A stretch of DNA of 64,000 bases, taken from Hymenopus coronatus. Its lineage: Eukaryota; Arthropoda; Insecta; Mantodea; Hymenopodidae. The notes under the pieces were generated by a model. The model ran no database searches. It saw only the letters and a list, made by a program, of their open reading frames with translations, and was not told the DNA's origin. Where the stretch lies: assembly GCA_030762935.1 (NCBI GenBank), contig CM060890.1, forward strand, positions 149,444,129-149,508,128, in the 5' to 3' direction. Position 1 is the stretch's first letter. The number at the start of each line of letters is the position of its first letter. Made by a program: the position numbers and the translations under genes. Below, one piece after another: positions 14,883 to 64,000 of the stretch.

Positions 14883-14884
14883 AA

Positions 14885-15306
14885 TTATTTTGAGATGATA
14901 TTCCCCAACTGAGTGAATCTAGCTATCCAACTCCTGTGCTACACACGAAAAGAAGAGAAAAAAAAAACAACAACATTAAATTAATATTGTCAACATCATT
15001 GGAACATCTAAAACGGATGTTTATCGAATAATACAGGAATTTGGGTCTAGAGTCTAGAACAGCGCTTCCAAACGCAGGAAAACCTTAGGAGCAGGACCTG
15101 GCAGGTGAAATGTGGCAATGGGTATTTCTTTAGATAAAACGAATGTTTTTATTACCATCGAGTGGGCCAAAGTGATGCTCCAACTTCATTCGAGAGAACA
15201 TGGAAAAGTTTTCCAAGGGATTCATGTTACTGCTCTCGGGGAAACTTGGCATTCAGAGGATTGTCAATAATAAAAACTAATGCAGCCTGTTGTCATAGGA
15301 ATATTA
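14885..15306. other. Unassigned sequence before the 85/105-bp repeat
   Basis: Nothing recognised. A short A-rich stretch lies near 14957-14975. The final part grades into a diverged first unit of the following tandem repeat. Confidence 0.4.
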
Positions 15307-18170: not shown

Positions 18171-18204
18171 TTTGAAAACTTTCTTACAGCTGTCGTACAA
18201 GCAC

Positions 18205-18262
18205 AGGATGGATAGGTAGAGTCAGCTTGAAAAATGCAATACCATAGCCGGCATTTCAAGCA
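18205..18262 (-). mobile_element. SINE body remnant at the left edge of the satellite
   Basis: GGATAGGTAGAGTCAGCTTG (18210-18229), followed by an AATGCAATACCATAGCCGGC segment, aligns with GGATATGTAGAGTCCGACTG (14721-14740) and the AATGCCGCAGCCGG that follows. The degraded B-box region TTTCAAGCAC (18254-18263) matches TTGAACCAC in that SINE. The alignment runs without a break into the first satellite monomer, so the array starts inside a SINE of this family and keeps its 3' flank. Confidence 0.75.
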
Positions 18263-18351
18263 CAGATCTCCCAGTCTCTGGCTGTTACTCTAACAATTTA
18301 ACCACCATGGCAACATGCGAAGACAGTATTAAAACCCCAAATGACTCTCAT

Positions 18352-18365
18352 GTTTCCTAGGAAAC
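18352..18365. repeat. 14-bp perfect palindrome (first copy of the array-wide motif)
   Basis: GTTTCCTAGGAAAC equals its own reverse complement and recurs in most monomers at 105-bp spacing. The related SINE at 14854-14867 has only the imperfect GTTTCCCGGTTAAC, so symmetry was gained or perfected in the satellite. It contains the AvrII site CCTAGG. Confidence 0.9.
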
Positions 18366-18618
18366 CACAGATCTCCTAGCCTCAGGTAGTTACTATAAAC
18401 ACTTAACTACCACGGCAACATGCCAAGACAGTATTAAAACCCCAACTGACTCGCAAATTTCCTAGGATACCACAGATTACCCAATCTCTGGCTGTTACTC
18501 TAACAATTTAACTACCATGGCAACATGCTAAGACAGTATTAAAACCCCAAATAACTCGCATGCACTCGCATGTTTCCTAGGAAACCACAGATCTCCTAGT
18601 CTCAGGTAGTTACTCTAA

Positions 18619-18629
18619 CCACTTAGCTA
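18619..18629 (-). promoter_or_regulatory. Pol III A-box match in a class A monomer (representative)
   Basis: The - strand reads TAGCTAAGTGG, fitting TRGYNNARNGG at all 11 positions. It recurs in most class A monomers. The B-box that should lie downstream (GGTTCRANNCC) is replaced by GGTTTCCTAGG, so efficient Pol III transcription is not expected. This is a sequence match only. Confidence 0.5.
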
Positions 18630-21600
18630 CCACGGAAACATGCCAAGACAGTATTAAAACCCTAACTGACTCGCATGTTTCCTAGGAAACCACAGATCTC
18701 CCAGCCTCAGGTAGTTACTCTAACCACTTAGCTACCACGGAGACATGCCAAGACAGTATTAAAACCCCAACTGACTCGCATGTTTACTAGGATACCACAG
18801 ATCTCCCAGTCTCAGGCTGTTACTCTAACAATTTAACTACCATGGCAACATGCCAAGACAGTATTAAAACCCCAACTGACTCGCATGTTTCCTAGGAAAC
18901 GACAGATCTCCCAGCCTTAGGCAGTTACTCTAACCACTTAGCTACCACGGTAACATGCCAAGACATAATTAAAACACCAACTGACTCGCATGTTTCCTAG
19001 GAAACAACAGATCTCCCAGCCTCAGGCAGGTACTCTAACCACTTAGCTACCACGGCAACATGCCAAGACAGTACTAAAACCCCAACTGACTCGCAAGTTT
19101 CCTAGGAAACCACAGATCTCCCAGTCTGAGGCAGTTACACTAACCACTTAGCTACCAAGGCAACATGCCAAGACAGTATTAAAATCCCAACTGACTCGCA
19201 TGTTTCCTAGGAAACCACAGATCTCCTAGCCTCAGGCAGTTACTGTAACCACTTAGCTACCACGGCAACATGCCAAGACAGTATTGAAACCCCAACTGAC
19301 TCGCACGTTTCCTAGGAAACCACAGATCTCCCAGCCTCAGGCAGTTACTCTAACCACTTAGCTACCACGGCAACATGCCAAGACAGTATTAAAACCCCAA
19401 CTGACTCGCAAGTTTCCTAGGAAACCACAGATCTCCTAGCCTCAGGCAGTTACTCTAACCACTTAGCTACCACGGCAACATGCCAAGACAGTATTAAAAC
19501 CCCAACTGACTCGCATGTTTCCTAGGAAACCACAGATCTCCTAGCCTCAGGCAGTTACTCTAACCACTTAACTACCACGGCAACATGCCATGACAGTATT
19601 TAAACACAAACTGACTCGCATGTTTCCTAGGAAACCACAGAACTCCTAGTCTGAGGCAGTTACTCTAACCACTTAGCTACCACGTCAACATGCCAAGACA
19701 GTATTAAAATCCCAAACTGCCTCCCTGGTTTCCTAGGAAACCACAGATCTGTTAGTCTCAGGCAGTTACTCTAACCACTTAGGCACCTCGGCAACATGCC
19801 AACACAGTATTAAAACCCCAACTGACTCGCATGTTTCCTAGAAAACCACAGAACTGCTAGTCTGAGGCAGTTACTCTAACCACTTAGCTACCACGGAAGC
19901 ATGCCAAGACAGTATTAAAACCCCCAACTGACTCGCAAGTTTCCTAGGAAACCACAGATCTCCTAGTCTCAGGCAGTTACTCTAACCACTTAGCTACCAC
20001 GGAAACATGCCAAGACAGTATTAAAACCCCCAACTGACTCGCAAGTTTCCTAGGAAACCACAGATCTCCTAGTCTCAGGCAGTTACTCTAACCACTTAGC
20101 TACCACGGCAACATGCCAAGACAGTATTAAAATCCCAACTGACTCGCATGTTTCCTAGGAAACCACAGATCTACTAGCCTCAGGCAGTTACTCTAACCAC
20201 TTAGCTACCACGGCAACATGCCAAGACAGTATTAAAACCCCAACTGACTCGCATGTTTCCTAGGAAACCACAGATCTCCCAGCCTCAAGCATTTACTCTA
20301 ACCACTTAGCTACCACGGCAACATGCCAAGACAGTATTAAAACCCCAACTGCCTCGCATATTTCCTAGGAAACCACAGATCTCCTAGTCTCAGGCAGGTA
20401 CTCTAACCACTTAGCTACCACGGCAAAATGCCAAGGCAGTGTTAAAACCCCAACTGACTCGCATGTTTCCTAGGAAACCACTGATCTCCTAGCCTCAGGC
20501 ACTTACTCTAACCACTTCACTACCAAGGCAACATGCCAAGTCAGTATTAACACCCCAAATGACTCGCATGTTTCCTAGGAAACCACAGATCACCCAGCCT
20601 CAGGCAGTTACTCTAACCACTTAGCTACCACGGCAACATGCCATGGCAGTTTTAAAACCCCAACTGACTCGCATGTTTCCTAGGAAACCACAGATCTTTC
20701 AGCCTCAGGCAGTTACTCTAACCACTTAGCTACCACGGCAACAGGCCAAGAGAGTATGAAAACCCCAGCTGACTCGCATGTTTTCTAGGAAACCACAGAT
20801 CTCCTAGCCTCAGGTAGTTACTCTAACCACTTAGCTACCATGGCAACATGCCAAGACAGTATTAAAACCCCAACTGACTCGCAAGTTTCCAAGGATACCA
20901 CAGATCTCCCAGTCTGAGGCAGTTACTCTAACCACTTAGCTACCACGGCCACGAGCCAAGACAATTTTAAAACCCCAACTGACTCGCATGTTTCCCAGGA
21001 AACAACAGATCTCCCAGCCTCAGGCAGTTACTCTAACCACTTAGCTACAAAGGCAACATGCCAAGACAGTATTATAACCCCAACTGAGTCGCATGATTCC
21101 TCGGAAACCACAGATCTCCTAGTCTCAGGCAGTTACTCTAACCACTTAGCTACCACGGCAACATGCTAAGACAGTATTAAAACCCCAGCTGACTCGCATG
21201 TTTCCTAGGAAACCACAGATTTCCCCGTTTGAGGCAGTTACTCTAACCACTTAGCTACCACGGCAACATGCCAAGACAGTATTAAAACCCCAACTGGGTA
21301 GCATGAATCCTCGGAAATCACAGATCTCCTAGTCTCAGGTAGTTTCTCTAACCTCTTAGCTACGACGGCAACAGGCCAAGACAGTATTAAAACCCCAACT
21401 GACTCGCATATTTCCTAGGAAACCACAGATCTCCCAGCCTCAGGCAGTTACTCTAACCACTTAGCTACCACGTCAACATGCCAAGACAGTATTAAAACCC
21501 CAACTGCCTTGAATGTTTACTAGGAAACCACAGATCTCCCAGTCTCTGGCTGTTACTCTAACAATTTAACTACCATGGCAACATGCCAAGACAGTATTAA

Positions 21601-22799
21601 AACCCCAACTGACTCGCATGTTTTCTAGGAAACCAAAGTTCTCCCAGTCTCTGGCTGTTACTCTAACAATTTAATTACCATGGCAACATGCCAAGACAGT
21701 ATTATAACCCCAAATGTCTCGCATGATTCCTAGGAAACCACAGATCTCCTAGTCTAAGGTAGTTAACTCTAACCACTTAGCTACCACGGAAACATGCCAA
21801 GACAGTATTAAAAGCCCAACTGACTCGCATGTTTACTAGGAAACCACAGATCTCCCAGTCTCTGGCTGTTACTATAACAATTTAACTACCATGGCAGCAT
21901 GCCAAGACAGTATTAAAACCCCAACTGACTCGCATGTTTCCTAGGAAACGACAGATCTCCCAGGCTTAGGCAGTTACTCTAACCACTTAGCTACCACGGC
22001 AACATGCAAAGACATAATTAAAACACCAACTGACTCGAATGTTTCCTAGGAAACAACAGATCTCCCAGCCTCAGGCAGGTACTCTAACCACTTAGCTACC
22101 ACGGCAACATGCCAAGAGAGTATTAAAATCCCAACTGATTCGCATGTTTCCTAGGAAACCACAGATCTCCTAGCCTCAGGCAGTTACTCTAACCACTTAG
22201 CTACCAAGGCAATATACCAAGACAGTATTAAAATCCCAACTGACTCGCATGTTTCCTAGGAAACCACAGATCTCCCAGTCTGAGGCAGTTACTCTAACCA
22301 CTTAGCTACCACGGCCACGAGCCAAGACAATTTTAAAACCCCAACTGACTCGCATGTTTCCCAGGAAACAACAGATCTCCCAGCCTCAGGCAGTTACTCT
22401 AACCACTTAGCTACAAAGGCAACATGCCAAGACAGTATTATAACCCCAACTGAGTCGCATGATTCCTCGGAAACCACAGATCTCCTAGTCTCAGGCAGTT
22501 ACTCTAACCACTTAGCTACCACGGCAACATGCTAAGACAGTATTAAAACCCCAGCTGACTCGCATGTTTCCTAGGAAACCACAGATTTCCCCGTTTGAGG
22601 CAGTTACTCTAACCACTTAGCTACCACGGCAACATGCCAAGACAGTATTAAAACCCCAACTGGGTAGCATGAATCCTCGGAAATCACAGATCTCCTAGTC
22701 TCAGGTAGTTTCTCTAACCTCTTAGCTACCACGGCAACAGGCCAAGACAGTATTAAAACCCCAACTGACTCGCATATTTCCTAGGAAACCACAGATCTC

Positions 22800-25700
22800 C
22801 CAGCCTCAGGCAGTTACTCTAACCACTTAGCTACCACGGCAACATGCCAAGACAGTATTAAACCCCAACTGACTCGCATGTTTTCTGGCAAACCACAGAT
22901 CTCTTGCCTCAGGCAGTTATTCTAACCACTTAGCTACCACGGGAACATGCCAAGACATAATTAAAACCCCAACTGACTCGCATGTTTCCTAGGAAACCAC
23001 AGATCTCCCAGCCTCAGGCACTTACTCTAACAAGTTAGCTACCACGTCAACATGCCAAGACAGTATTACAACCCCAACTAACTCGCATGTTTCCTAGGAT
23101 ACCACAGATCCCCTAGTCTCAGGCAGTTACTCTAACCACTTAGCTACCACGGCAACATGCCAAGACAGTATTAAAACCCCAACTGCCTCGCATATTTCCT
23201 AGGAAACCACAGATCTCCTAGTCTCAGGCAGGTACTCTAACCACTTAGCTACCACGGCAACATGCCAAGACAGTATTAAAACCCCAACTGACTCGCATGT
23301 TTCCTAGGAAACCACAGATCTCCCAGCCTCAAGCATTTACTCTAAACACTTAGCTACCACGGCAACATGCCAAGACAGTATTAAAACCCCAACTGCCTCG
23401 CATATTTCCTAGGAAACCACAGATCTCCTAGTCTCAGACAGGTACTCTAACCACTTAGCTACCACGGCAAAATGCCAAGGCAGTATTAAAACCCCAACTG
23501 ACTCGCATGTTTCCTAGGAAACCACTGATCTCCTAGCCTCAGGCAGTTACTCTAACCACTTAGCTACCAAGGCAACATGCCAAGTCAGTATTAACACCCC
23601 AAATGACTCGCATGTTTCGTAGGTAACCACAGATATCCCAGACTCAGGCAGTTACTCTAACCACTTAGCTACCACGGCAACATGCCAAGGCAGTTTTAAA
23701 ACCCCAACTGACTCGCATGTTTCCTAGGAAACCACAGATCTTTCAGCCTCAGGCAGTTACTATAACCACTTAGCTACCACGGCAACATGCCAAGACAGTA
23801 TGAAAACCCCAGCTGACTCGCATGTTTCCTAGGAAACCATAGATCTCCTAGACTCAGGTAGTTACTCTAACCACTTAGCTACCATGGCAACATGCCAAGA
23901 CAGTACTAAAACCCTAACTGCCTCGCAAGTTTCCTAGGATACCACAGATCTCCCAGTCTGAGGCAGTTACTCTAACCACTTAGCTACCACGGCCACGAGC
24001 CAAGACAATTTTAAAACCCCAACTGACTCGCATGTTTCCCAGGAAACGACAGATCTCCCAGCCTCAGGCAGTTACTCTAACCACTTAGCTACCAAGGCAA
24101 CATGCCAAGACAGTATTAAAACCCCAACTGAGTCGCATGATTCCTCGGAAATCACAGATCTCCTAGTCTCAGGCAGTTACTCTAACCACTTAGCTACCAC
24201 GGCAACATGCCAAGACAGAATTAAAACCCCAGCTGACTCGCATGTTTCCTAGGAAACCACAGATTTCCCCGTCTGAGGAAGTTACTCTAACCACTTAGCT
24301 ACCACGGCAACATGCCAAGGCAGTATTAAAACCCCAATTGGGTAGCATGAATCCTCGGAAATCACAGATCTCCTAGTCTCAGGTAGTTTCTCTAACCACT
24401 TAGCTACCACGGCAAAAGGCCAAGACAGTATTAAAACCCCAACTGACTCGCATGTTTCCTAGGAAACCACAGATCTCCCAGCCTCAGGCAGTTACTCTAA
24501 CCACTTAGCTACCACGTCAACATGCCAAGAGAGTATTAAAACCCCAACTGCCTTGAATGTTTACTAGGAAACCACAGATCTCCCAGTCTCTGGCTGTTAC
24601 TCTAACAATTTAACTACCATGGCAACATGCCAAGACAGTATTAAAACCCCAACTGACTCGCATGTTTCCTAGGAAACCAAAAATCTCCCAGTCTCTGGCT
24701 GTTACTCTAACAATTTAACTACCATGGCAACATGCCAAGACAGTATTAAAACCCCAAATGTCTCGCATGGTTCCTAGGAAACCACAGATCTCCTAGTCTA
24801 AGGTGTTTAACTCTAACCACTTAGCTACCACGGAAACATGCCAAGACAGTATTAAAAGCCCAACTGACTCGCATGTTTACTAGGAAACCACAGATCTCCC
24901 AGTCTCTGGCTGTTACTCTAACAATTTAGCTACCATGGCAGCATGCCAAGACAGTATTAAAACCCCAACTGACTCGCATGTTTCCTTGGAAACGACAGAT
25001 CTCCCAGCCTTAGGCAATTACTCTAACCACTTAGCTACCACGGCAACATGCAAAGACATAATTAAAACACCAACTGACTCGAATGTTTCCTAGGAAACAA
25101 CAGATCTCCCAGCCTTAGGCAGGTACTCTAACCACTTAGCTACCACGGCAACATGCCAAGACAGTATTTAAACCCCAACTGACTCGCATGTTTCCTAGGA
25201 AACCACAGAACTACTAGTCTGAGGCAGTTACTCTAACCACTTAGCTACCACGTCAACATGCCAAGACAGTATTAAAACCCCAAACTGCCTCGCATGTTTC
25301 CTAGGAAACCACAGATCTGCTAGTCTCAAGCAGTTACTCTAACCACTTAGCCACCACGGCAACATGCCAACACAGTATTAAAACCCCAACTGACTCGCAT
25401 GTTTCCTAGGAAACCACAGATCTCCCAGCCTTAGGCAGTTACTCTAACCACTTAGCTACCACGGCAACATGCCAAGACAGTATTAAACCCCAACTGACTC
25501 GCATGTTTTCTGGGAAACCACAGATCTCTTGCCTCAGGCAGTTATTCTAACCACTTAGCTACCACGGCAACATGCCAAGACATAATTAAAACCCCAACTG
25601 ACTCGCATGTTTCCTAGGAAACCACAGATCTCCCAGCCTCAGGCAGTTACTCTAACAAGTTAGCTACCACGTCAACATGCCAAGACAGTATTACAACCCC

Positions 25701-27800
25701 AACTAACTCGCATGTTTCCTAGGATACCACAGATCCCCTAGTCTCAGGCAGTTACTCTAACCAGTTAGCTACCACGGCAACATGCCAAGACAGTATTAAA
25801 ACCCCAACTGCCTCGCATATTTCCTAGGAAACCACAGATCTCCTAGTCTCAGGCAGGTACTCTAACCACTTAGCTACCACGGCAACATGCCAAGACAGTA
25901 TTAAAACCCCAACTGACTCGCATGTTTCCTAGGAAACCACAGATCTCCCAGCCTCAAGTATTTACTCTAAACACTTAGCTACCACGGCAACATGCCAAGA
26001 CAGTATTAAAACCCCAACTGACTCGCATATTTCCTAGGAAACCACAGATCTCCTAGTCTCAGGCAGGTACTCTAACCACTTAGCTACCACGGCAAAATGC
26101 CAAGGCAGTATTAAAACCCCAACTGACTCGCATGTTTCCTAGGAAACCACTGATCTCCTAGCCTCAGGCAGTTACTCTAACCACTTAGCTACCAAGGCAA
26201 CATGCCAAGTCAGTATTAACACCCCAAATGACTCGCATGTTTCGTAGGTAACCACAGATCTCCCAGACTCAGGCAGTTACTCTAACCACTTAGCTACCAC
26301 GGCAACATGCCAAGGCAGTTTTAAAACCCCAACTGACTCGCATGTTTCCTAGGAAACCACAGATCTTTCAGCCTCAGGCAGTTACTATAACCACTTAGCT
26401 ACCACGGCAACATGCCAAGACAGTATGAAAACCCCAGCTGACTCGCATGTTTCCTAGGAAACCACAGATCTCCTAGACTCAGGTAGTTACTCTAACCACT
26501 TAGCTACCATGGCAACATGCCAAGACAGTATTAAAACCCCAACTGCCTCGCAAGTTTCCTAGGATACCACAGATCTCCCAGTCTGAGGCAGTTACTCTAA
26601 CCACTTAGCTACCACGGCCACGAGCCAAGACAATTTTAAAACCCCAACTGACTCGCATGTTTCCCAGGAAACGACAGATCTCCCAGCCTCAGGCAGTTAC
26701 TCTAACCACTTAGCTACCAAGGCAACATGCCAAGACAGTATTAAAACCCCAACTGAGTCGCATGATTCCTCGGAAATCACAGATCTCCTAGTCTCAGGCA
26801 GTTACTCTAACCACTTAGCTACCACGGCAACATGCCAAGACAGTATTAAAACCCCAGCTGACTCGCATGTTTCCTAGGAAACCACAGATTTCCCCGTCTG
26901 AGGAAGTTACTCTAACCACTTAGCTACCACGGCAACATGCCAAGGCAGTATTAAAACCCCAATTGGGTAGCATGAATCCTCGGAAATCACAGATCTCCTA
27001 GTCTCAGGTAGTTTCTCTAACCACTTAGCTACCACGGCAACAGGCCAAGACAGTATTAAAACCCCTACTGACTCGCATGTTTCCTAGGAAACCACAGATC
27101 TCCCAGCCTCAGGCAGTTACTCTAACCACTTAGCTACCACGTCAACATGCCAAGAGAGTATTAAAACCCCAACTGCCTTGAATGTTTACTAGGAAACCAC
27201 AGATCTCCCAGTCTCTGGCTGTTACTCTAACAATTTAACTACCATGGCAACATGCCAAGACAGTATTAAAACCCCAACTGACTCGCATGTTTCCTAGGAA
27301 ACCAAAAATCTCCCAGTCTCTGGCTGTTACTCTAACAATTTAACTACCATGGCAACATGCCAAGACAGTATTAAAACCCCAAATGTCTCGCATGGTTCCT
27401 AGGAAACCACAGATCTCCTAGTCTAAGGTAGTTAACTCTAACCACTTAGCTACCACGGAAACATGCCAAGACAGTATTAAAAGCCCAACTGACTCGCATG
27501 TTTACTAGGAAACCACAGATCTCCCAGTCTCTGGCTGTTACTCTAACAATTTAGCTACCATGGCAGCATGCCAAGACAGTATTAAAACCCCAACTGACTC
27601 GCATGTTTCCTAGGAAACGACAGATCTCCCAGCCTTAGGCAATTACTCTAACCACTTAGCTACCACGGCAACATGCAAAGACATAATTAAAACACCAACT
27701 GACTCGAATGTTTCCTAGGAAACAACAGATCTCCCAGCCTTAGGCAGGTACTCTAACCACTTAGCTACCACGGCAACATGCCAAGAGAGTATTAAAATCA
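22800..27800. repeat. Tandem 25-monomer higher-order repeat (2,625 bp, two copies)
   Basis: Private markers recur exactly 2,625 bp apart: CTCTTGCCTC at 22901 and 25526, ACCCCAACTA at 23071 and 25696, the AATTGGGTAG monomer at about 24340 and 26965, and ACCAAAAATC at 24676 and 27301. Order is conserved throughout. Block edges are approximate. Confidence 0.85.
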
Positions 27801-28499
27801 CAACTGACTCGCATGTTTCCTAGGAAACCACAGATCTCCTATTTTCAGGAAGTTACTCTAACCACTTAGCTACCATGGCAACATACCAAGACAGTATTAA
27901 AACCCCAACTGACTCGCAAGTTTCCTAGGAAACCACAGATCTACTAGCCTCAGGCAGTTACTCTAACCACTTAGCTACCACGGCAACATGCCAAGACAGT
28001 ATTAAAACCCCAACTTACTCGCATGTTTCCTAGGAAACCACAGATCTCCCAGCCTCAAGCATTTACTCTAACCACTTAGCTACCACGGCAACATGCCAAG
28101 ACAGTATTAAAACCCCAACTGCCTCGCATATTTCCTAGGAAACCACAGATCTCCTAGTCTCAGGCAGGTACTCTAACCACTTAGCTACCACGGCAAAATG
28201 CCAAGGCAGTGTTAAAACCCCAACTGACTCGCATGTTTCCTAGGAAACCACTGATCTCCTAGCCTCAGGCAGTTACTCTAACCACTTCACTACCAAGGCA
28301 ACATGCCAAGTCAGTATTAACACCCCAACTGACTCGCATGTTTCCTAGGAAACCACAGATCTCCCAGCCTCAGGCAGTTACTCTAACCACTTAGCTACCA
28401 CGGCAACATGCCATGGCAGTTTTAAAACTCCAACTGACTCGCATGTTTCCTAGGAAACCACAGATCTTTCAGCCTCAGGCAGTTACTCTAACCACTTAG

Positions 28500-31400
28500 C
28501 TACAAAGGCAACATGCCAAGACAGTATTATAACCCCAACTGAGTCGCATGATTCCTCGGAAACCACAGATCTCCTAGTCTCAGGCAGTTACTCTAACCAC
28601 TTAGCTACCACGGCAACATGGTAAGACAGTATTAAAACCCCAGCTGACTCGCATGTTTCCTAGGAAACCACAGATTTCCCCGTTTGAGGCAGTTACTCTA
28701 ACCACTTAGCTACCACGGCAACATGCCAAGACAGTATTAAAACCCCAACTGGGTAGCATGAATCCTCGGAAATCACAGATCTCCTAGTCTCAGGTAGTTT
28801 CTCTAACCTCTTAGCTACCACGGCAACAGGCCAAGACAGTATTAAAACCCCAACTGACTCGCATATTTCCTAGGAAACCACAGATCTCCCAGCCTCAGGC
28901 AGTTACTCTAACCACTTAGCTACCACGTCAACATGCCAAGAGAGTATTAAAACCCCAACTGCCTTGAATGTTTACTAGGAAACCACAGATCTCCCAGTCT
29001 CTGGCTGTTACTCTAACAATTTAACTACCATGGCAACATGCCAAGACAGTATTAAAACCCCAACTGACTCGCATGTTTTCTAGGAAACCAAAGTTCTCCC
29101 AGTCTCTGGCTGTTACTCTAACAATTTAATTACCATGGCAACATGCCAAGACAGTATTATAACCCCAAATGTCTCGCATGATTCCTAGGAAACCACAGAT
29201 CTCCTAGTCTAAGGTAGTTAACTCTAACCACTTAGCTACCACGGAAACATGCCAAGACAGTATTAAAAGCCCAACTGACTCGCATGTTTACTAGGAAACC
29301 ACAGATCTCCCAGTCTCTGGCTGTTACTATAACAATTTAACTACCATGGCAGCATGCCAAGACAGTATTAAAACCCCAACTGACTCGCATGTTTCCTAGG
29401 AAACGACAGATCTCCCAGGCTTAGGCAGTTACTCTAACCACTTAGCTACCACGGCAACATGCAAAGACATAATTAAAACACCAACTGACTCGAATGTTTC
29501 CTAGGAAACAACAGATCTCCCAGCCTCAGGCAGGTACTCTAACCACTTAGCTACCACGGCAACATGCCAAGAGAGTATTAAAATCCCAACTGATTCGCAT
29601 GTTTCCTAGGAAACCACAGATCTCCTAGCCTCAGGCAGTTACTCTAACCACTTAGCTACCAAGGCAATATACCAAGACAGTATTAAAATCCCAACTGACT
29701 CGCATGTTTCCTAGGAAACCACAGATCTCCCAGTCTGAGGCAGTTACTCTAACCACTTAGCTACCACGGCCACGAGCCAAGACAATTTTAAAACCCCAAC
29801 TGACTCGCATGTTTCCCAGGAAACAACAGATCTCCCAGCCTCAGGCAGTTACTCTAACCACTTAGCTACAAAGGCAACATGCCAAGACAGTATTATAACC
29901 CCAACTGAGTCGCATGATTCCTCGGAAACCACAGATCTCCTAGTCTCAGGCAGTTACTCTAACCACTTAGCTACCACGGCAACATGCTAAGACAGTATTA
30001 AAACCCCAGCTGACTCGCATGTTTCCTAGGAAACCACAGATTTCCCCGTTTGAGGCAGTTACTCTAACCACTTAGCTACCACGGCAACATGCCAAGACAG
30101 TATTAAAACCCCAACTGGGTAGCATGAATCCTCGGAAATCACAGATCTCCTAGTCTCAGGTAGTTTCTCTAACCTCTTAGCTACCACGGCAACAGGCCAA
30201 GACAGTATTAAAACCCCAACTGACTCGCATATTTCCTAGGAAACCACAGATCTCCCAGCCTCAGGCAGTTACTCTAACCACTTAGCTACCACGGCAACAT
30301 GCCAAGACAGTATTAAACCCCAACTGACTCGCATGTTTTCTGGGAAACCACAGATCTCTTGCCTCAGGCAGTTATTCTAACCACTTAGCTACCACGGGAA
30401 CATGCCAAGACATAATTAAAACCCCAACTGACTCGCATGTTTCCTAGGAAACCACAGATCTCCCAGCCTCAGGCACTTACTCTAACAAGTTAGCTACCAC
30501 GTCAACATGCCAAGACAGTATTACAACCCCAACTAACTCGCATGTTTCCTAGGATACCACAGATCCCCTAGTCTCAGGCAGTTACTCTAACCACTTAGCT
30601 ACCACGGCAACATGCCAAGACAGTATTAAAACCCCAACTGCCTCGCATATTTCCTAGGAAACCACAGATCTCCTAGTCTCAGGCAGGTACTCTAACCACT
30701 TAGCTACCACGGCAACATGCCAAGACAGTATTAAAACCCCAACTGACTCGCATGTTTCCTAGGAAACCACAGATCTCCCAGCCTCAAGCATTTACTCTAA
30801 CCACTTAGCTACCACGGCAACATGCCAAGACAGTATTAAAACCCCAACTGCCTCGCATATTTCCTAGGAAACCACAGATCTCCTAGTCTCAGGCAGGTAC
30901 TCTAACCACTTAGCTACCACGGCAAAATGCCAAGGCAGTGTTAAAACCCCAACTGACTCGCATGTTTCCTAGGAAACCACTGATCTCCTAGCCTCAGGCA
31001 GTTACTCTAACCACTTCACTACCAAGGCAACATGCCAAGTCAGTATTAACACCCCAACTGACTCGCATGTTTCCTAGGAAACCACAGATCTCCCAGCCTC
31101 AGGCAGTTACTCTAACCACTTAGCTACCACGGCAACATGCCATGGCAGTTTTAAAACCCCAACTGACTCGCATGTTTCCTAGGAAACCACAGATCTTTCA
31201 GCCTCAGGCAGTTACTCTAACCACTTAGCTACAAAGGCAACATGCCAAGACAGTATTATAACCCCAACTGAGTCGCATGATTCCTCGGAAACCACAGATC
31301 TCCTAGTCTCAGGCAGTTACTCTAACCACTTAGCTACCACGGCAACATGCTAAGACAGTATTAAAACCCCAGCTGACTCGCATGTTTCCTAGGAAACCAC

Positions 31401-53200: not shown

Positions 53201-56200
53201 CCCAACTGCCTCGCATATTTCCTAGGAAACCACAGATCTCCTAGTCTCAGGCAGGTACTCTAACCACTTAGCTACCACGGCAAAATGCCAAGGCAGTATT
53301 AAAACCCCAACTGACTCGCATGTTTCCTAGGAAACCACTGATCTCCTAGCCTCAGGCAGTTACTCTAACCACTTAGCTACCAAGGCAACATGCCAAGTCA
53401 GTATTAACACCCCAAATGACTCGCATGTTTCGTAGGTAACCACAGATCTCCCAGACTCAGGCAGTTACTCTAACCACTTAGCTACCACGGCAACATGCCA
53501 AGGCAGTTTTAAAACCCCAACTGACTCGCATGTTTCCTAGGAAACCACAGATCTTTTTGCCTCAGGCAGTTACTATAACCACTTAGCTACCACGGCAACA
53601 TGCCAAGACAGTATGAAAACCCCAGCTGACTCGCATGTTTCCTAGGAAACCACAGATCTCCTAGACTCAGGTGGTTACTCTAACCACTTAGCTACCATGG
53701 CAACATGCCAAGACAGTATTAAAACCCCAACTGCCTCGCAAGTTTCCTAGGATACCACAGATCTCCCAGTCTGAGGCAGTTACTCTAACCACTTAGCTAC
53801 CACGGCCACGAGCCAAGACAATTTTAAAACCCCAACTGACTCGCATGTTTCCCAGGAAACGACTGATCTCGCAGCCTCAGGCAGTTACTCTAACCACTTA
53901 GCTACCAAGGCAACATGCCAAGACAGTATTAAAACCCCAACTGAGTCGCATGATTCCTCGGAAATCACAGATCTCCTAGTCTCAGGCAGTTACTCTAACC
54001 ACTTAGCTACCACGGCAACATGCCAAGACAGTATTAAAACCCCAGCTGACTCGCATGTTTCCTAGGAAACCACAGATTTCCCCGTCTGAGGAAGTTACTC
54101 TAACCACTTAGCTACCACGGCAACATGCCAAGGCAGTATTAAAACCCCAATTGGGTAGCATGAATCCTCGGAAATCACAGATCTCCTAGTCTCAGGTAGT
54201 TTCTCTAACCACTTAGCTACCACGGCAACAGGCCAAGACAGTATTCAAACCCCAACTGACTCGCATGTTTCCTAGGAAACCACAGATCTCCCAGCCTCAG
54301 GCAGTTACTCTAACCACTTAGCTACCACGTCAACATGCCAAAAGAGTATTAAAACCCCAACTGCCTTGAATGTTTACTAGGAAACCACAGATCTCCCAGT
54401 CTCTGGCTGTTACTCTAACAATTTAACTACCATGGCAACATGCCAAGACAGTATTAAAACCCCAACTGACTCGCATGTTTCCTAGGAAACCAAAAATCTC
54501 CCAGTCTCTGGCTGTTACTCTAACAATTTAACTACCATGGCAACATGCCAAGACAGTATTAAAACCCCAAATGTCTCGCATGGTTCCTAGGAAACTACAG
54601 ATCTCCTAGTCTAAGGTAGCTAACTCTAACCACTTAGCTACCACGGAAACATGCCAAGACAGTATTAAAAGCCCAACTGACTCGCATGTTTACTAGGAAA
54701 CCACAGATCTCCCAGTCTCTGGCTGTTACTCTAACAATTTAGCTACCATGGCAGCATGCCAAGACAGTATTAAAACCCCAACTGACTCGCATGTTTCCTA
54801 GGAAACGACAGATCTCCCAGCCTTAGGCAATTACTCTAACCACTTAGCTACCACGGCAAATGCAAAGACATAATTAAAACACCAACTGACTCGAATGTTT
54901 CCTAGGAAACAACAGATCTCCCAGCCTTAGGCAGGTACTCTAACCACTTAGCTACCACGGCAACATGCCAAGAGAGTATTAAAATCCCAACTGACTCGCA
55001 TGTTTCCTAGGAAACCACAGATCTCCTATTTTCAAGAAGTTACTCTAACCACTTAGCTACCAAGGCAACATGCCAAGACAGTATTAAAATCCCAACTGAC
55101 TCGCATGTTTCCTAGGAAACCGCAGATCTCCCAGCCTCAGGCAGTTACTCTAACCGCTTAGCTACCACGGCAACATACCAAGACAGTATTAAAACCCCAA
55201 CTGACTCGCAAGTTTCCTAGGAAACCACAGATCTACTAGCCTCAGGCAGTTACTCTAACCACTTAGCTACCACGGCAACATGCCAAGACAGTATTAAAAC
55301 CCCAACTGACTCGCATGTTTCCTAGGAAACCACAGATCTCCCAGCCTCAAGCATTTACTCTAACCACTTAGCTACCACGGCAACATGCCAAGACAGTATT
55401 AAAACCCCAACTGCCTCGCATATTTCCTAGGAAACCACAGATCTCCTAGACTCAGGCAGGTACTCTAACCACTTAGCTACCACGGCAAAATGCCAAGGCA
55501 GTGTAAAAACCCCAACTGACTCGCATGTTTCCTAGGAAACCACTGATCTCCTAGCCTCAGGCAGTTACTCTAACCACTTCACTACCAAGGCAACATGCCA
55601 AGTCAGTATTATCACCCCAACTGACTCGCATGTTTCCTAGGAAACCACAGACCTCCTAGCCTCAGGCAGCTACTCTAACCACTTAGCTACCACGGCAACA
55701 TGCCAAGGCAGTTTTAAAACCCCAACTGACTCGCATGTTTCCTAGGAAACCACAGATCTTTCAGCCTCAGGCAGTTACTCTAACCACTTAGCTACCATGG
55801 CAACATGCCAAGACAGTATTAAAACCCCAACTGACTCGCAATTTTCCTAGGATACCACAGATCTCCCAGTCTGAGGCAGGTACTCTAACCACTTAGCTAC
55901 CACGGCCACGTGCCAAGACAATTTTAAAACCCCAACTCACTCGCATGTTTCCTAGAAAACCACAGATCTCCCAGCCTGTGGCAGTTACTCTAACCACTTA
56001 GCTACCACGGCAACATGCCATGGCAGTTTTAAAACCCCAACTGACTCGCATGTTTCCTAGGAAACCACAGATCTTTCAGCCTCAGGCAGTTACTCTAACC
56101 ACTTAGCTACCACGGCAACAGGCCAAGACAGTATGAAAACCCCAGCTGACTCGCATGTTTTCTAGGAAACCACAGATCTCCTAGCCTCAGGTAGTTACTC

Positions 56201-59200
56201 TAACCACTTAGCTACCATGGCAACATGCCAAGACAGTATTAAAACCCCAACTGACTCGCAAGTTTCCTAGGATACCACAGATCTCCCAGTCTGAGGCAGT
56301 TACTCTAACCACTTAGCTACCACGGCCACGAGCCAAGACAATTTTAAAACCCCAACTGACTCTCATGTTTCCCAGGAAACAACAGATCTCCCAGCCTCAG
56401 GCAGTTACTCTAACCACTTAGCTACAAAGGCAACATGCCAAGACAGTATTATAACCCCAACTGAGTCGCATGATTCCTCGGAAACCACAGATCTCCTAGT
56501 CTCAGGCAGTTACTCTAACCACTTAGCTACCACGGCAACATGCTAAGACAGTATTAAAACCCCAGCTGACTCGCATGTTTCCTAGGAAACCACAGATTTC
56601 CCCGTTTGAGGCAGTTACTCTAACCACTTAGCTACCACGGCAACATGCCAAGACAGTATTAAAACCCCAACTGGGTAGCATGAATCCTCGGAAATCACAG
56701 ATCTCCTAGTCTCAGGTAGTTTCTCTAACCTCTTAGCTACCACGGCAACAGGCCAAGACAGTATTAAAACCCCAACTGACTCGCATATTTCCTAGGAAAC
56801 CACAGATCTCCCAGCCTCAGGCAGTTACTCTAACCACTTAGCTACCACGTCAACATGCCAAGACAGTATTAAAACCCCAACTGCCTTGAATGTTTACTAG
56901 GAAACCACAGATCTCCCAGTCTCTGGCTGTTACTCTAACAATTTAACTACCATGGCAACATGCCAAGACAGTATTAAAACCCCAACTGACTCGCATGTTT
57001 TCTAGGAAACCAAAGTTCTCCCAGTCTCTGGCTGTTACTCTAACAATTTAATTACCATGGCAACATGCCAAGACAGTATTATAACCCCAAATGTCTCGCA
57101 TGATTCCTAGGAAACCACAGATCTCCTAGTCTAAGGTAGTTAACTCTAACCACTTAGCTACCACGGAAACATGCCAAGACAGTATTAAAAGCCCAACTGA
57201 CTCGCATGTTTACTAGGAAACCACAGATCTCCCAGTCTCTGGCTGTTACTATAACAATTTAACTACCATGGCAGCATGCCAAGACAGTATTAAAACCCCA
57301 ACTGACTCGCATGTTTCCTAGGAAACGACAGATCTCCCAGCCTTAGGCAATTACTCTAACCACTTAGCTACCACGGCAAATGCAAAGACATAATTAAAAC
57401 ACCAACTGACTCGAATGTTTCCTAGGAAACAACAGATCTCCCAGCCTTAGGCAGGTACTCTAACCACTTAGCTACCACGGCAACATGCCAAGAGAGTATT
57501 AAAATCCCAACTGACTCGCATGTTTCCTAGGAAACCACAGATGTCCTATTTTCAAGAAGTTACTCTAACCACTTAGCTACCAAGGCAACATGCCAAGACA
57601 GTATTAAAATCCCAACTGACTCGCATGTTTCCTAGGAAACCGCAGATCTCCCAGCCTCAGGCAGTTACTCTAACCGCTTAGCTACCACGGCAACATACCA
57701 AGACAGTATTAAAACCCCAACTGACTCGCAAGTTTCCTAGGAAACCACAGATCTACTAGCCTCAGGCAGTTACTCTAACCACTTAGCTACCACGGCAACA
57801 TGCCAAGACAGTATTAAAACCCCAACTGACTCGCATGTTTCCTAGGAAACCACAGATCTCCCAGCCTCAAGCATTTACTCTAACCACTTAGCTACCACGG
57901 CAACATGCCAAGACAGTATTAAAACCCCAACTGCCTCGCATATTTCCTAGGAAACCACAGATCTCCTAGTCTCAGGCAGGTACTCTAACCACTTAGCTAC
58001 CACGGCAAAATGCCAAGGCAGTGTAAAAACCCCAACTGACTCGCATGTTTCCTAGGAAACCACTGATCTCCTAGCCTCAGGCAGTTACTCTAACCACTTC
58101 ACTACCAAGGCAACATGCCAAGTCAGTATTAACACCCCAACTGACTCGCATGTTTCCTAGGAAACCACAGATCTCCCAGCCTCAGGCAGTTACTCTAACC
58201 ACTTAGCTACCACGGCAACATGCCATGGCAGTTTTAAAACCCCAACTGACTCGCATGTTTCCTAGGAAACCACAGATCTTTCAGCCTCAGGCAGTTACTC
58301 TAACCACTTAGCTACCACGGCAACAGGCCAAGACAGTATGAAAACCCCAGCTGACTCGCATGTTTTCTAGGAAACCACAGATCTCCTAGCCTCAGGTAGT
58401 TACTCTAACCACTTAGCTACCATGGCAACATGCCAAGACAGTATTAAAACCCCAACTGACTCGCAAGTTTCCTAGGATACCACAGATCTCCCAGTCTGAG
58501 GCAGTTACTCTAACCACTTAGCTACCACGGCCACGAGCCAAGACAATTTTAAAACCCCAACTGACTCTCATGTTTCCCAGGAAACAACAGATCTCCCAGC
58601 CTCAGGCAGTTACTCTAACCACTTAGCTACAAAGGCAACATGCCAAGACAGTATTATAACCCCAACTGAGTCGCATGATTCCTCGGAAACCACAGATCTC
58701 CTAGTCTCAGGCAGTTACTCTAACCACTTAGCTACCACGGCAACATGCTAAGACAGTATTAAAACCCCAGCTGACTCGCATGTTTCCTAGGAAACCACAG
58801 ATTTCCCCGTTTGAGGCAGTTACTCTAACCACTTAGCTACCACGGCAACATGCCAAGACAGTATTAAAACCCCAACTGGGTAGCATGAATCCTCGGAAAT
58901 CACAGATCTCCTAGTCTCAGGTAGTTTCTCTAACCTCTTAGCTACCACGGCAACAGGCCAAGACAGTATTAAAACCCCAACTGACTCGCATATTTCCTAG
59001 GAAACCACAGATCTCCCAGCCTCAGGCAGTTACTCTAACCACTTAGCTACCACGTCAACATGCCAAGACAGTATTAAAACCCCAACTGCCTTGAATGTTT
59101 ACTAGGAAACCACAGATCTCCCAGTCTCTGGCTGTTACTCTAACAATTTAACTACCATGGCAACATGCCAAGACAGTATTAAAACCCCAACTGACTCGCA

Positions 59201-59499
59201 TGTTTTCTAGGAAACCAAAGTTCTCCCAGTCTCTGGCTGTTACTCTAACAATTTAATTACCATGGCAACATGCCAAGACAGTATTATAACCCCAAATGTC
59301 TCGCATGATTCCTAGGAAACCACAGATCTCCTAGTCTAAGGTAGTTAACTCTAACCACTTAGCTACCACGGAAACATGCCAAGACAGTATTAAAAGCCCA
59401 ACTGACTCGCATGTTTACTAGGAAACCACAGATCTCCCAGTCTCTGGCTGTTACTATAACAATTTAACTACCATGGCAGCATGCCAAGACAGTATTAAA

Positions 59500-62400
59500 A
59501 CCCCAACTGACTCGCATGTTTCCTAGGAAACGACAGATCTCCCAGGCTTAGGCAGTTACTCTAACCACTTAGCTACCACGGCAACATGCAAAGACATAAC
59601 TAAAACACCAACTGACTCGAATGTTTCCTAGGAAACAACAGATCTCCCAGCCTCAGGCAGGTACTCTAACCACTTAGCTACCACGGCAACATGCCAAGAG
59701 AGTATTAAAATCCCAACTGATTCGCATGTTTCCTAGGAAACCACAGATCTCCTAGCCTCAGGCAGTTACTCTAACCACTTAGCTACCAAGGCAATATGCC
59801 AAGACAGTATTAAAATCCCAACTGACTCGCATGTTTCCTAGGAAACCACAGATCTCCCAGTCTGAGGCAGTTACTCTAACCACTTAGCTACCACGGCCAC
59901 GAGCCAAGACAATTTTAAAACCCCAACTGTCTCGCATGTTTCCCAGGAAACAACAGATCTCCCAGCCTCAGGCAGTTACTCTAACCACTTAGCTACAAAG
60001 GCAACATGCCAAGACAGTATTATAACCCCAACTGAGTCGCATGATTCCTCGGAAACCACAGATCTCCTAGTCTCAGGCAGTTACTCTAACAACTTAGCTA
60101 CCACGGCAACATGCTAAGACAGTATTAAAACCCCAGCTGACTCGCATGTTTCCTAGGAAACCACAGATTTCCCCGTTTGAGGCAGTTACTCTAACCACTT
60201 AGCTACCACGGCAACATGCCAAGACAGTATTAAAACCCCAGCTGACTCGCATGTTTCCTAGGAAACCACAGATCTCCTAGTCTCAGGTAGTTTCTCTAAC
60301 CTCTTAGCTACCACGGCAACAGGCCAAGACAGTATTAAAACCCCAACTGACTCGCATATTTCCTAGGAAACCACAGATCTCCCAGCCTCAGGCAGTTACT
60401 CTAACCACTTAGCTACCACGGCAACATGCCAAGACAGTATTAAACCCCAACTGACTCGCATGTTTTCTGGGAAACCACAGATCTCTTGCCTCAGGCAGTT
60501 ATTCTAACCACTTAGCTACCACGGCAACATGCCAAGACATAATTAAAACCCCAACTGACTCGCATGTTTCCTAGGAAACCACAGATCTCCCAGCCTCAGG
60601 CACTTACTCTAACAAGTTAGCTACCACGTCAACATGCCAAGACAGTATTACAACCCCAACTAACTCGTATGTTTCCTAGGATACCACAGATCCCCTAGTC
60701 TCAGGCAGTTACTCTAACCACTTAGCTACCACGGCAACATGCCAAGACAGTATTAAAACCCCAACTGCCTCGCATATTTCCTAGGAAACCACAGATCTCC
60801 TAGTCTCAGGCAGGTACTCTAACCACTTAGCTACCACGGCAACATGCCAAGACAGTATTAAAACCCCAACTGACTCGCATGTTTCCTAGGAAACCACAGA
60901 TCTCCCAGCCTCAAGCATTTACTCTAAACACTTAGCTACCACGGCAACATGCCAAGACAGTATTAAAACCCCAACTGCCTCGCATATTTCCTAGGAAACC
61001 ACAGATCTCCTAGTCTCAGGCAGGTACTCTAACCACTTAGCTACCACGGCAAAATGCCAAGGCAGTATTAAAACCCCAACTGACTCGCATGTTTCCTAGG
61101 AAACCACTGATCTCCTAGCCTCATTCAGTTACTCTAACCACTTAGCTACCAAGGCAACATGCCAAGTCAGTATTAACACCCCAAATGACTCGCATGTTTC
61201 GTAGGTAACCACAGATCTCCCAGACTCAGGCAGTTACTCTAACCACTTAGCTACCACGGCAACATGCCAAGGCAGTTTTAAAACCCCAACTGACTCGCAT
61301 GTTTCCTAGGAAACCACAGATCTTTCAGCCTCAGGCAGTTACTATAACCACTTAGCTACCACGGCAACATGCCAAGACAGTATGAAAACCCCAGCTGACT
61401 CGCATGTTTCCTAGGAAACCACAGATCTCCTAGACTCAGGTAGTTACTCTAACCACTTAGCTACCATGGCAACATGCCAAGACAGTATTAAAACCCCAAC
61501 TGCCTCGCAAGTTTCCTAGGATACCACAGATCTCCCAGTCTGAGGCAGTTACTCTAACCACTTAGCTACCACGGCCACGAGCCAAGACAATTTTAAAACC
61601 CCAACTGACTCGCATGTTTCCCAGGAAACGACAGATCTCCCAGCCTCAGGCAGTTACTCTAACCACTTAGCTACCAAGGCAACATGCCAAGACAGTATTA
61701 AAACCCCAACTGAGTCGCATGATTCCTCGGAAATCACAGATCTCCTAGTCTCAGGCAGTTACTCTAACCACTTAGCTACCACGGCAACATGCCAAGACAG
61801 TATTAAAACCCCAGCTGACTCGCATGTTTCCTAGGAAACCACAGATTTCCCCGTCTGAGGAAGTTACTCTAACCACTTAGCTACCACGGCAACATGCCAA
61901 GGCAGTATTAAAACCCCAATTGGGTAGCATGAATCCTCGGAAATCACAGATCTCCTAGTCTCAGGTAGTTTCTCTAACCACTTAGCTACCACGGCAACAG
62001 GCCAAGACAGTATTAAAACCCCAACTGACTCGCATGTTTCCTAGGAAACCACAGATCTCCCAGCCTCAGGCAGTTAATCTAACCACTTAGCTACCACGTC
62101 AACATGCCAAGAGAGTATTAAAACCCCAACTGCCTTGAATGTTTACTAGGAAACCACAGATCTCCCAGTCTCTGGCTGTTACTCTAACAATTTAACTACC
62201 ATGGCAACATGCCAAGACAGTATTAAAACCCCAACTGACTCGCATGTTTCCTAGGAAACCAAAAATCTCCCAGTCTCTGGCTGTTACTCTAACAATTTAA
62301 CTACCATGGCAACATGCCAAGACAGTATTAAAACCCCAACTGACTCGCATGTTTCCTAGGAAACCAAAAATCTCCCAGTCTCTGGCTGTTACTCTAACAA

Positions 62401-64000
62401 TTTAATTACCATGGCAACATGCCAAGACAGTATTAAAACCCCAAATGTCTCGCATGGTTCCTAGGAAACCACAGATCTCCTAGTCTAAGGTAGTTAACTC
62501 TACCCACTTAGCTACCAGGGAAACATGCCAAGACAGTATTAAAAGCCCAACTGACTCGCATGTTTACTAGGAAACCACAGATCTCCCAGTCTCTGGCTGT
62601 TACTCTAACAATTTAGCTACCATGGCAGCATGCCAAGACAGTATTAAAACCCCAACTGACTCGCATGTTTCCTAGGAAACGACAGATCTCCCAGCCTTAG
62701 GCAATTACTCTAACCACTTAGCTACCACGGCAACATGCAAAGACATAATTAAAACACCAACTGACTCGAATGTTTCCTAGGAAACAACAGATCTCCCAGC
62801 CTTAGGCAGGTACTCTAACCACTTAGCTACCACGGCAACATGCCAAGAGAGTATTAAAATCCCAACTGACTCGCATGTTTCCTAGGAAACCACAGATCTC
62901 CTATTTTCAGGAAGTTACTCTAACCACTTAGCTACCAAGGCAACATGCCAAGACAGTATTAAAATCCCAACTGACTCGCATGTTTCCTAGGAAACCGCAG
63001 ATCTCCCAGCCTCAGGCAGTTACTCTAACCGCTTAGCTACCACGGCAACATACCAAGACAGTATTAAAACCCCAACTGACTCGCAAGTTTCCTAGGAAAC
63101 CACAGATCTACTAGCCTCAGGCAGTTACTCTAACCACTTAGCTACCACGGCAACATGCCAAGACAGTATTAAAATCCCAACTGACTCGCATTTTCCTAGG
63201 AAACCACAGATCTCCTAGCCTCAGGCAGTTTCTCTAACCACTTAACTACCACGGCAACATGCCAAGAGAGTATTTAAACCCCAAATGACTCGCATGTTTC
63301 CTAGGAAACCACAGATCTCCTAGCCTCAGGCAGTTACTCTACCCACTTAGCTACCACATCAACATGCCAAGACAGTATTAAAACCCCAAACTGCCTCGCA
63401 TGTTTCCTAGGAAACCACAAATCTGCTAGTCTCAGGCAGTTACTCTAACCACTTAGCCACCACGGCAACATGCCAACACAATATTAAAACCCCAAGTGAC
63501 TCGCATGTTACCTAGGAAACCACAGATCTCCCAGCCTTAGGCAGTTACTCTAACCACTTAGCTACCACGGCAACATGCCAAGACAGTATTAAACCCCAAC
63601 TGACTCGCATGTTTTCTAGGAAACCACAGATCTCTTGCCTCAGGCAGTTATTCTAACCAGTTAGCTACCACGTCAACATGCTAAGACAGTATTACAACCC
63701 CAACTAACTCGCATGTTTCCTAGGATACCATAGATCCCCTAGTCTCAGGCAGTTACTCTAACCACTTAGCTACCACGGCAAAATGCCAAGACAGTATTAA
63801 AACCCCAGCTGACTAGCATGTTTCCTAGGAAACCACAGATTTCCCAGTCTGAGGCAATTACTCTAACCACTTAGCTACCACGGCAACATGCCAAGTCAGT
63901 ATTAACACCCCAAATGACTCGCATGTTTCGTAGAAAACCACAGATCTCCCAGACTCAGGCAGTTACTCTAACCACTTAGCTACCACGGCAACATGCCAAG
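59500..64000. repeat. Long-range copy of 32.1-36.6 kb at 59.5-64.0 kb
   Basis: The variant CCCAGGCTTAGG at about 32143 recurs 27,398 bp later, at about 59541. The short monomer ACTCGCATTTTCC at 35681 recurs at 63184, 27,503 bp later. The 105-bp difference equals one monomer, and one AAAAATCTCC monomer is indeed doubled at about 62230-62440. The right end leaves the window. Confidence 0.75.

What the first reader, a model, noticed from the sequence alone, without database searches (positions are those of the whole stretch)
18205..64000. A satellite array born from a tRNA-derived SINE, with founder flank and junction still visible
The 105-bp monomer aligns with the head and 5' linker of the SINE at 14700-14882. 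The left array edge (18205-18262) keeps that SINE's 3' body in register. The 96-bp SINE segment between two GTGGTT hexamers, at 14769-14774 and 14865-14870 as AACCAC on +, corresponds to one monomer. The monomer junction, AGATCT-GTGGTT-TCCTAGGAAAC on the - strand, is what recombination between the two hexamers would give. This is a readable birth event: SINE insertion, exchange at internal short repeats, then amplification. tRNA- and SINE-derived satellites are known as a class; a case with the founder edge and the junction repeats both visible is unusual.
Basis: partly seen in the sequence, partly recalled or inferred. Interest (0 to 1): 0.93.

Follow-up and report, generated by a model that had tools for sequence, protein, structure and literature searches.

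The report
Satellite array born inside one SINE
In what looks like an arthropod genome, a 123-kilobase block of about 1,170 tandem DNA repeats grew out of the middle of a single small mobile element whose two ends still stand at either side of the block, and another copy of the same kind of element, caught at only four repeats, shows how such blocks begin.

Summary
The 105-bp array runs past the window to C11:149585340, about 123 kb. Its left edge is the 3' body of a tRNA-derived SINE; its right edge, outside the window, is the 5' part of such a SINE. Both are in register, so the array is best read as an expansion inside one SINE copy between two GTGGTT words. The monomer stops inside the tRNA T-arm, which gives the direction SINE to satellite. 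The array junction (<=3 mismatches) occurs 1006 times in the 3.13-Gb genome, all on one strand. I predicted the junction for another SINE subfamily and found an independent four-unit array at C3:6.246 Mb (97-bp units, 97-99% alike) with SINE sequence on both sides. The family also made a 92-bp tandem repeat over a different word, CGGCT, at many loci concentrated near chromosome ends, where the C11 array also lies. The SINE at 14719-14908 is a neighbour, not the founder. SINE-derived satellites with SINE ends and subtelomeric bias are published in squamate reptiles, so this is a new member of a known kind. It adds both founder ends and a four-copy replicate. How the first duplication arose is inferred.

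The parts
18258..64000 (-). 105-bp satellite array, in-window part; continues to C11:149585340 (about 123 kb, about 1,170 monomers in all by length)
   Evidence: TRF; L009; junction pattern 1006 reverse-strand matches; 93.6% mean identity of 527 monomers (window plus L089) to consensus
18200..18263 (-). 3' end of the founder SINE (rest of the B-box word, acceptor stem, body down to CTATCCA) in register with the last monomer
   Evidence: shuffle test (77 vs max 32, 0 of 500)
18258..18263 (-). outer copy of the junction word at the left edge, GTGCTT (one change from GTGGTT)
14719..14908 (-). neighbouring SINE of the same family (another subfamily, internal deletion in the tRNA head); not the founder
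14865..14870 (-). 5' GTGGTT of the neighbouring SINE (AACCAC on +)
14769..14774 (-). B-box GTGGTT of the neighbouring SINE (AACCAC on +)

Best explanation
The array is a satellite that expanded inside one dispersed tRNA-derived SINE, about 4.8-4.9 Mb from the end of contig C11. Shown: the SINE carries GTGGTT in its leader and again at the start of its B box, about 96-105 bp apart depending on the copy; the array repeats the stretch between them; a SINE 5' part stands at the right edge and a SINE 3' body at the left edge, both in register; and the same kind of event happened independently on C3, where it stands at four units. Inferred: a microhomology-mediated event (template switch, polymerase slippage or end joining between sister chromatids) duplicated the stretch once; unequal exchange between the now ~100-bp identical neighbours expanded it; larger blocks of tens of monomers were then copied, giving the exact repeats of up to 2,715 bp in the array. 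The repeat keeps the pol III A box but loses the B box, so it is probably not transcribed from its own promoter and most likely has no selected function.
For: Right flank vs SINE 5' part: local score 118 against a maximum of 43 in 500 shuffles; left flank vs body: 77 against a maximum of 32 in 500. Each edge aligns to the SINE consensus in one piece across the outermost monomer (q1-216 on the right, q105-277 on the left). Dispersed copies elsewhere match across the left edge, e.g. C18:7741726, 84% over query 13-131. Polarity: with an E-value limit of 1, Rfam tRNA (RF00005) at or above its gathering score matches 13 of 14 SINE loci given, best 55.7 bits and full length 1-71 including the T-arm that the monomer cuts, and neither of the 2 array-edge loci L009 and L059. 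Junction pattern: 1006 reverse, 0 forward, 0 control matches; the 100 listed are all in this array. Replicate: L101 has five GTGGTT at exact 97-bp spacing, four units 97-99% identical, consensus q1-217 running into the first unit and the last unit running on to q243. Second product of the family: 92-bp units joined at CGGCT; 3 of the 6 distinct loci read (L092, L093, L094) have a first unit reaching back to q1-12 and a last unit reaching q306. Block amplification: exact 2,715-bp repeat at offset 6,403. B box 0, A box 350 in window 18261-64000 by simple patterns.
Against: No relative's genome is available, so a single-SINE orthologue was not seen. The founder belongs to a diverged subfamily and I identified no target-site duplication for it. 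At 6-7 bp the junction word alone could arise by chance, and GTGGTT is also present a third time (D-arm) in that subfamily. The C3 replicate lacks a recognisable SINE body after q243, so its 3' SINE end is truncated. Junction-like words outside the C11 array: one on C15; six listed places (the same C15 place and five others) and at least one forward match that was not listed. None of the listed ones has a second copy at 97-105 bp; the one I read (C15, L102) is a SINE whose 5' site lost ACCT, not a duplication. The other 906 of the 1006 matches were not listed. I analysed 45.7 kb of the array in the window, two further 10-kb stretches and the right end; the rest rests on the pattern count. Homogeneity is lower in the long array (about 0.89 pairwise) than in the four-unit one, the opposite of the squamate trend. 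The Rfam scan of the window at gathering scores also misses the neighbouring SINE, so it says nothing on polarity.
Confidence: 0.9

Rival explanations
1. Alternative for the first step only: the duplication happened during retroposition (reverse transcriptase template switching between the two GTGGTT words), so the SINE landed already carrying two or more units, and only the later expansion was chromosomal.
For: Direct repeats of 12 bp or more flank 11 of 63 clusters against 1.3% of 624 mismatched pairs, and 9 of those 11 clusters contain units in both orientations, so composite units do seem to enter as one insertion; among 6 distinct loci with 92-bp tandem copies, the two best matches shown per pair lie within the element.
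Against: The GTGGTT junction was found as an array at only two places, in different subfamilies, so there is no sign that a retroposing lineage carried it; sampled 92-bp tandem loci cluster near chromosome ends while other copies do not, which points to a chromosomal effect after insertion.
Confidence: 0.2
2. The satellite existed first and the SINE picked up its leader and head from it.
For: Only that the sequences are shared.
Against: SINE copies hold a full tRNA fold through the T-arm and acceptor stem that the monomer lacks; the array junction appears on one strand only and at one locus in the listing, whereas SINE copies are on all of C1-C21 in the samples.
Confidence: 0.03
3. The array arrived as a ready-made block (for example from extrachromosomal circular DNA) and integrated into an unrelated SINE by homology.
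For: Large exact blocks inside the array show that block copying happens.
Against: No sign of a source array elsewhere (with its listing limit); both edges are in exact SINE register; the four-unit replicate needs no donor.
Confidence: 0.05
4. The repeat descends from a tRNA gene, not from a SINE.
For: The monomer contains the tRNA 5' half with an A box.
Against: The other half of the monomer is the SINE leader and both flanks are SINE body and SINE 5' region.
Confidence: 0.01

Closest known systems
SINE-derived satellites (sSats) of squamate reptiles, Vassetzky, Kosushkin and Ryskov 2023 (PMC10702118; parts 1-4 of 5 read)
   Same: Tandem units are part of a tRNA-derived SINE and shorter than it; terminal units extend to the SINE end(s); hundreds to over 1,200 units at some loci; subtelomeric preference while the SINEs themselves are spread; several unit types per SINE family; the main snake unit contains box B and part of the body, as the 92-bp unit here does.
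   Different: Different host (TTAGG telomere repeat, arthropod type) and a SINE family whose copies usually carry an inverted second tRNA head. Both SINE ends flank one 123-kb array, a minor form in squamates. Here the junction word and an independent four-unit replicate at the same word are shown; in the parts I read no junction word is described.
Xenopus satellite 1 / OAX and Hydromantes Hy/Pol III (table of PMC9659126, passages seen; discussed in PMC10702118)
   Same: Tandem repeats with a tRNA-related part.
   Different: PMC10702118 judges their SINE origin unconfirmed; here the parent SINE family and both flanks are in the same genome.
Helicoverpa zea HzSINE1 (GTCY)n and mouse B1 (GGCAGA)n (table of PMC9659126, passages seen)
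   Same: Tandem repeats linked to SINE or SINE-like elements, the first in an insect.
   Different: Micro- and minisatellites of 4-6 bp units; not a unit of about 100 bp taken from the SINE.
TE-born satellites in general, reviews PMC9659126 and PMC12628747 (passages seen)
   Same: Proposed steps: duplication inside a TE, microhomology-initiated joining or unequal crossing-over, then amplification.
   Different: Those are general models; this genome shows two stages (4 and about 1,170 units) of the same junction.

Membership tests
SINE-derived satellite (sSat) | Tandem head-to-tail unit that is a part of a SINE and shorter than it | tested here: met
   105-bp unit = consensus positions ~106-213 of the family
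SINE-derived satellite (sSat) | Terminal unit(s) extending to the SINE end(s) | tested here: met
   C11: both sides (q1 on the right, q277 on the left). C3 replicate: q1 on one side, q243 on the other
SINE-derived satellite (sSat) | At least four middle monomers | tested here: met
   C11: 436 anchors in the window alone, 1006 junctions in all. The C3 array has four units including its end units, so it falls short of four middle ones
SINE-derived satellite (sSat) | Subtelomeric preference, with the SINEs themselves spread | tested here: met
   92-bp loci within 10 Mb of a contig end 28 of 31, other copies 9 of 86 (samples); C1: 90 of 90 variant junctions in the first 8.83 of 60.7 Mb. Exceptions C2:23.80 and 24.04 Mb. 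There is one 105-bp array, 4.8-4.9 Mb from the C11 end, so preference of that unit cannot be tested
SINE-derived satellite (sSat) | Longer arrays more homogeneous | tested here: not met
   C11 about 0.89 pairwise against 0.97-0.99 for the four C3 units; a trend in the paper, two arrays here, not a defining criterion
tRNA-derived SINE (parent element) | tRNA-related head with A and B boxes | tested here: met
   RF00005 at or above gathering in 13 of 14 SINE loci given, best 55.7 bits; TAGCTCAGTGG and GGTTCAAATCC in the consensus
tRNA-derived SINE (parent element) | Target-site duplications of variable length | tested here: met
   11 of 63 clusters at 12 bp or more against 1.3% of 624 mismatched flank pairs; 52 of 63 clusters showed none of that length
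tRNA-derived SINE (parent element) | 3' end shared with a partner LINE, or simple-repeat tail | not tested
   no partner LINE was sought

The most novel reading that the evidence does not exclude
This SINE family is a repeat-offender satellite founder in an arthropod. Short matching words built into the element (GTGGTT/GTGGTT and CGGCT/CGGCT) decide where internal duplications start, chromosome-end chromatin decides which of them expand, and both products examined split the pol III promoter (one keeps only box A, the other only box B). That is close to the snake pattern, reached independently, so birth and growth of satellites follow general, predictable rules that can be read in one genome from 4 to over 1,000 copies.
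Probability: 0.45. Interest if true: 0.72.

Novelty: new member of a known kind. Interest (0 to 1): 0.57.

Why it matters
How satellites begin is usually argued from sequence resemblance after the origin has been erased. Here the parent family, both founder edges, the junction word, a four-unit replicate of the same step and a second tandem product of the same family are all in one genome. The claim that internal microhomology starts satellites and that chromosome ends let them grow can be tested by typing the C3 and C11 loci in individuals and relatives.

Tried and rejected
The C15:109539705 junction-like place was expected to be a third birth; its sequence (L102) shows a SINE with a shortened 5' site, so I dropped it. 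Five further listed places (C20, C1, C5, C7, C11:70.07 Mb) are single words without a listed partner at 97-105 bp; I did not read them, and at least one forward match of that call was not listed. I considered that the inverted second tRNA head might trigger the duplications, but inverted pairs are the rule in the family (43 of 63 clusters), so it says nothing special. ARAGORN (bacterial code) found no tRNA and Rfam no family at its gathering score in the window. A first attempt at cutting the array into monomers used too loose an anchor and gave mixed 34/71/105-bp pieces; the figures used are. I did not identify the species; TTAGG telomere repeats at the start of C1 and an endonuclease-reverse-transcriptase piece fit an arthropod, no more. 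A higher-order structure of one fixed length was looked for and not found: shared blocks occur at many offsets.

Rows dropped before counts: the unplaced contigs C27 and C32, the array itself, the window's 14700 copy and the tandem loci L049 and L060 were left out of the comparison set, and places under 100 kb apart were merged (38 typed tandem places to 31 loci). The 86 comparison copies were not all read; they are copies not known to be internally tandem. One search scored 39 of 7,214 candidates and did not list all its matches; searches scored 37, 40 and 40 of 1,722, 4,599 and 2,399, so these are samples chosen by similarity. In one search, 527 of 531 pieces were kept, those of 95-116 bp.
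Full report
WHAT IS THERE. From 18261 to the window's end lies one tandem array of period 105. It stops at C11:149585340, in locus L009. That makes about 123 kb or, by length, about 1,170 monomers. A 33-base junction pattern is found 1006 times with up to three mismatches, all on the reverse strand, none forward, none in the reversed control; the 100 places listed are all in this array. In 527 monomers from the window and the next 10 kb the mean identity to consensus is 93.6%, and random pairs are about 0.89 alike. Exact repeats of up to 2,715 bp at offset 6,403 show block copying inside the array.

THE PARENT. Twenty-nine copies fetched with the 14700 SINE gave a consensus. It holds a 5' region (q1-104), a leader (q105-160), a complete tRNA-like head, a body ending in CTATCCA (q267) and a tail. 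With an E-value limit of 1, Rfam tRNA at or above its gathering score matches 13 of the 14 SINE loci given (not L010), best 55.7 bits, and neither array-edge locus L009 or L059. Direct repeats of 12 bp or more flank 11 of 63 family clusters, against 1.3% of 624 mismatched flank pairs, as for a retroposed element. Most clusters (43 of 63) contain units in both orientations, and 9 of the 11 flanked ones do, so a composite with an inverted second head seems to insert as one piece.

BOTH EDGES. Read on the minus strand, the array is entered from the SINE 5' region at its right edge: consensus q1-216 aligns in one piece over the right flank and the first monomer (one search shows TTGACC-TAATAGTTG...GTCACCTGGTGGTATCCTAGGAAACATGCGAGTC). 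It leaves into the SINE body at its left edge: q105-277 in one piece over the last monomer and window 18200-18263. Shuffled flanks never reach these scores (0 of 500 for each flank). The simplest reading is one founder SINE, now split by the array, with an inverted head on its far side as in many copies (L009:929-1023).

JUNCTION AND DIRECTION. The monomer is the stretch from the leader GTGGTT to the B-box GTGGTT. The alignment shows the switch: to the left of the word the monomer follows the head, to its right the leader. In the SINE consensus the B-box word continues into GGTTCAAATCC and a paired acceptor stem; in the monomer it continues into the leader, so the tRNA is cut. The window array has no B box and 350 A boxes by the patterns. 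This gives the direction from tRNA to SINE to satellite. Subfamily marks (GTGGTTAGAG; GACTGGGAGATCTGTGG) place the founder with diverged copies fetched through, not with the 14700 copy. In that subfamily GTGGTT also occurs in the D-arm; that copy was not used.

A REPLICATE. If the two GTGGTT words cause the event, the other subfamily should give a different, predictable junction. I searched for it with up to three mismatches: three places on C3 at 97-bp spacing (two mismatches each) and one on C15. The C3 locus (L101) has five GTGGTT at exact 97-bp spacing and four units 97-99% identical. SINE sequence from q1 leads into the first unit; after the last unit the SINE can be followed to about q243 and no further. 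It lies 6.2 Mb from a contig end. The C15 place is not a duplication. A wider pattern listed six places outside the C11 array (C15 again and five others), none in tandem; the listing is capped and at least one forward match was not shown.

A SECOND PRODUCT. The same family also forms tandem 92-bp units, from q191 to q282 joined at CGGCT. In the six distinct loci read, TRF gives 13.9 and 12.0 copies (two arms of L049), 2.5 (L060), 12.0 (L092), 9.9 (L093), 15.0 (L094) and 13.0 (L096); in L092, L093 and L094 the first unit reaches back to q1-12 and the last on to q306. The exact junction occurs 7,276 times in the genome, 0 in the control; a one-letter variant 2,746 times, 0 in the control. Of 31 sampled loci, 28 are within 10 Mb of a contig end, against 9 of 86 other copies (Fisher p = 5e-16). 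These are samples picked by similarity. A check that does not depend on them uses, whose listing runs through C1 and on into C2: 90 of 90 C1 matches, in 18 clusters, are in the first 8.83 Mb of 60.7 Mb; none is at the other end of C1. Against this, two of the ten listed C2 matches are at 23.8 and 24.0 Mb. C3 and C17 carry sampled loci near both ends. The C11 array is 4.78-4.90 Mb from its contig end.

HOW IT WORKS. Shown: SINE sequence in register at both edges, the junction word, the direction, a repeat of the event, and end bias of the family's 92-bp tandem form. Inferred: a microhomology-driven first duplication, because 5-7 bp is short for homologous exchange; growth by unequal exchange once units of about 100 bp exist; later block copying. 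Reviews propose the same steps for TE-born satellites in general (PMC9659126 and PMC12628747, passages seen). A first step during reverse transcription is not excluded.

WHAT IS KNOWN. SINE-derived satellites are described from a survey of 56 squamate genomes (PMC10702118, parts 1-4 of 5 read): units of about 70-290 bp (67 in snakes), up to over 1,200 monomers, terminal units reaching one SINE end as the common form and both ends as a minor one, subtelomeric bias, the SINEs themselves spread. The authors write that it is uncertain whether such satellites are restricted to squamates. In the library searched, 'SINE-derived satellite' with 'insect' gave two papers, that one and a review that cites it; a wider search gave seven, of which I saw passages of two. 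The nearest insect case in those passages is a table entry, HzSINE1 of Helicoverpa zea with a (GTCY)n microsatellite; I saw no satellite of about 100-bp units taken from an insect SINE. I did not read the other five. The present locus is a new member of the squamate kind, in another phylum as far as the telomere repeat tells, with an unusually complete record.

Noticed in passing
L048:1457-1939, L055:1502-1950, L038:1509-1942, L085:1127-1658, L014:101-657: The SINE family seems to insert as a 430-560 bp composite with two tRNA heads in inverted orientation: direct repeats of 12-14 bp (up to one mismatch) flank the whole composite. An inverted head pair in one retroposed unit looks unusual to me (recall, not searched).
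   Followed up: partly
L049:295-3082 (C3:4429583-): Both arms of an inverted SINE pair carry 92-bp arrays (13.9 and 12.0 copies by TRF) with the same CGGCT junction, as if the arms exchanged information or the array formed before inversion.
   Followed up: no
C1:898821-900225: Junction words at multiples of 78 bp instead of 92: a further unit length in the same family.
   Followed up: no
genome, C21 (545.7 Mb): None of the 31 sampled 92-bp tandem loci is on the largest contig C21, though 10 of 86 other copies are. The strong forward/reverse imbalance of the junctions (5057/2219 and 2353/393) suggests one or more long arrays not located here.
   Followed up: no
11545-12738: A 60-bp repeat in 20 copies (also read as 179-bp units) with long open frames on both strands; the weak Pfam matches are below their cut-offs and look like composition effects.
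   Followed up: partly
905-1231: Endonuclease-reverse-transcriptase piece (PF14529, 27.0 bits, just under the 27.4 cut-off), probably remains of a LINE.
   Followed up: partly
15328-16063: A second, short tandem repeat with 85-, 105- and 190-bp periods, unrelated to the 105-bp satellite by eye in spite of the equal period.
   Followed up: no
14251-14342, 16437-17100, L009:1110-2120: Copies of another repeat with TACTTTCTC / GAGAAAGTA ends lie on both sides of the array, seen by eye, so the founder SINE sits in a repeat-rich neighbourhood.
   Followed up: no
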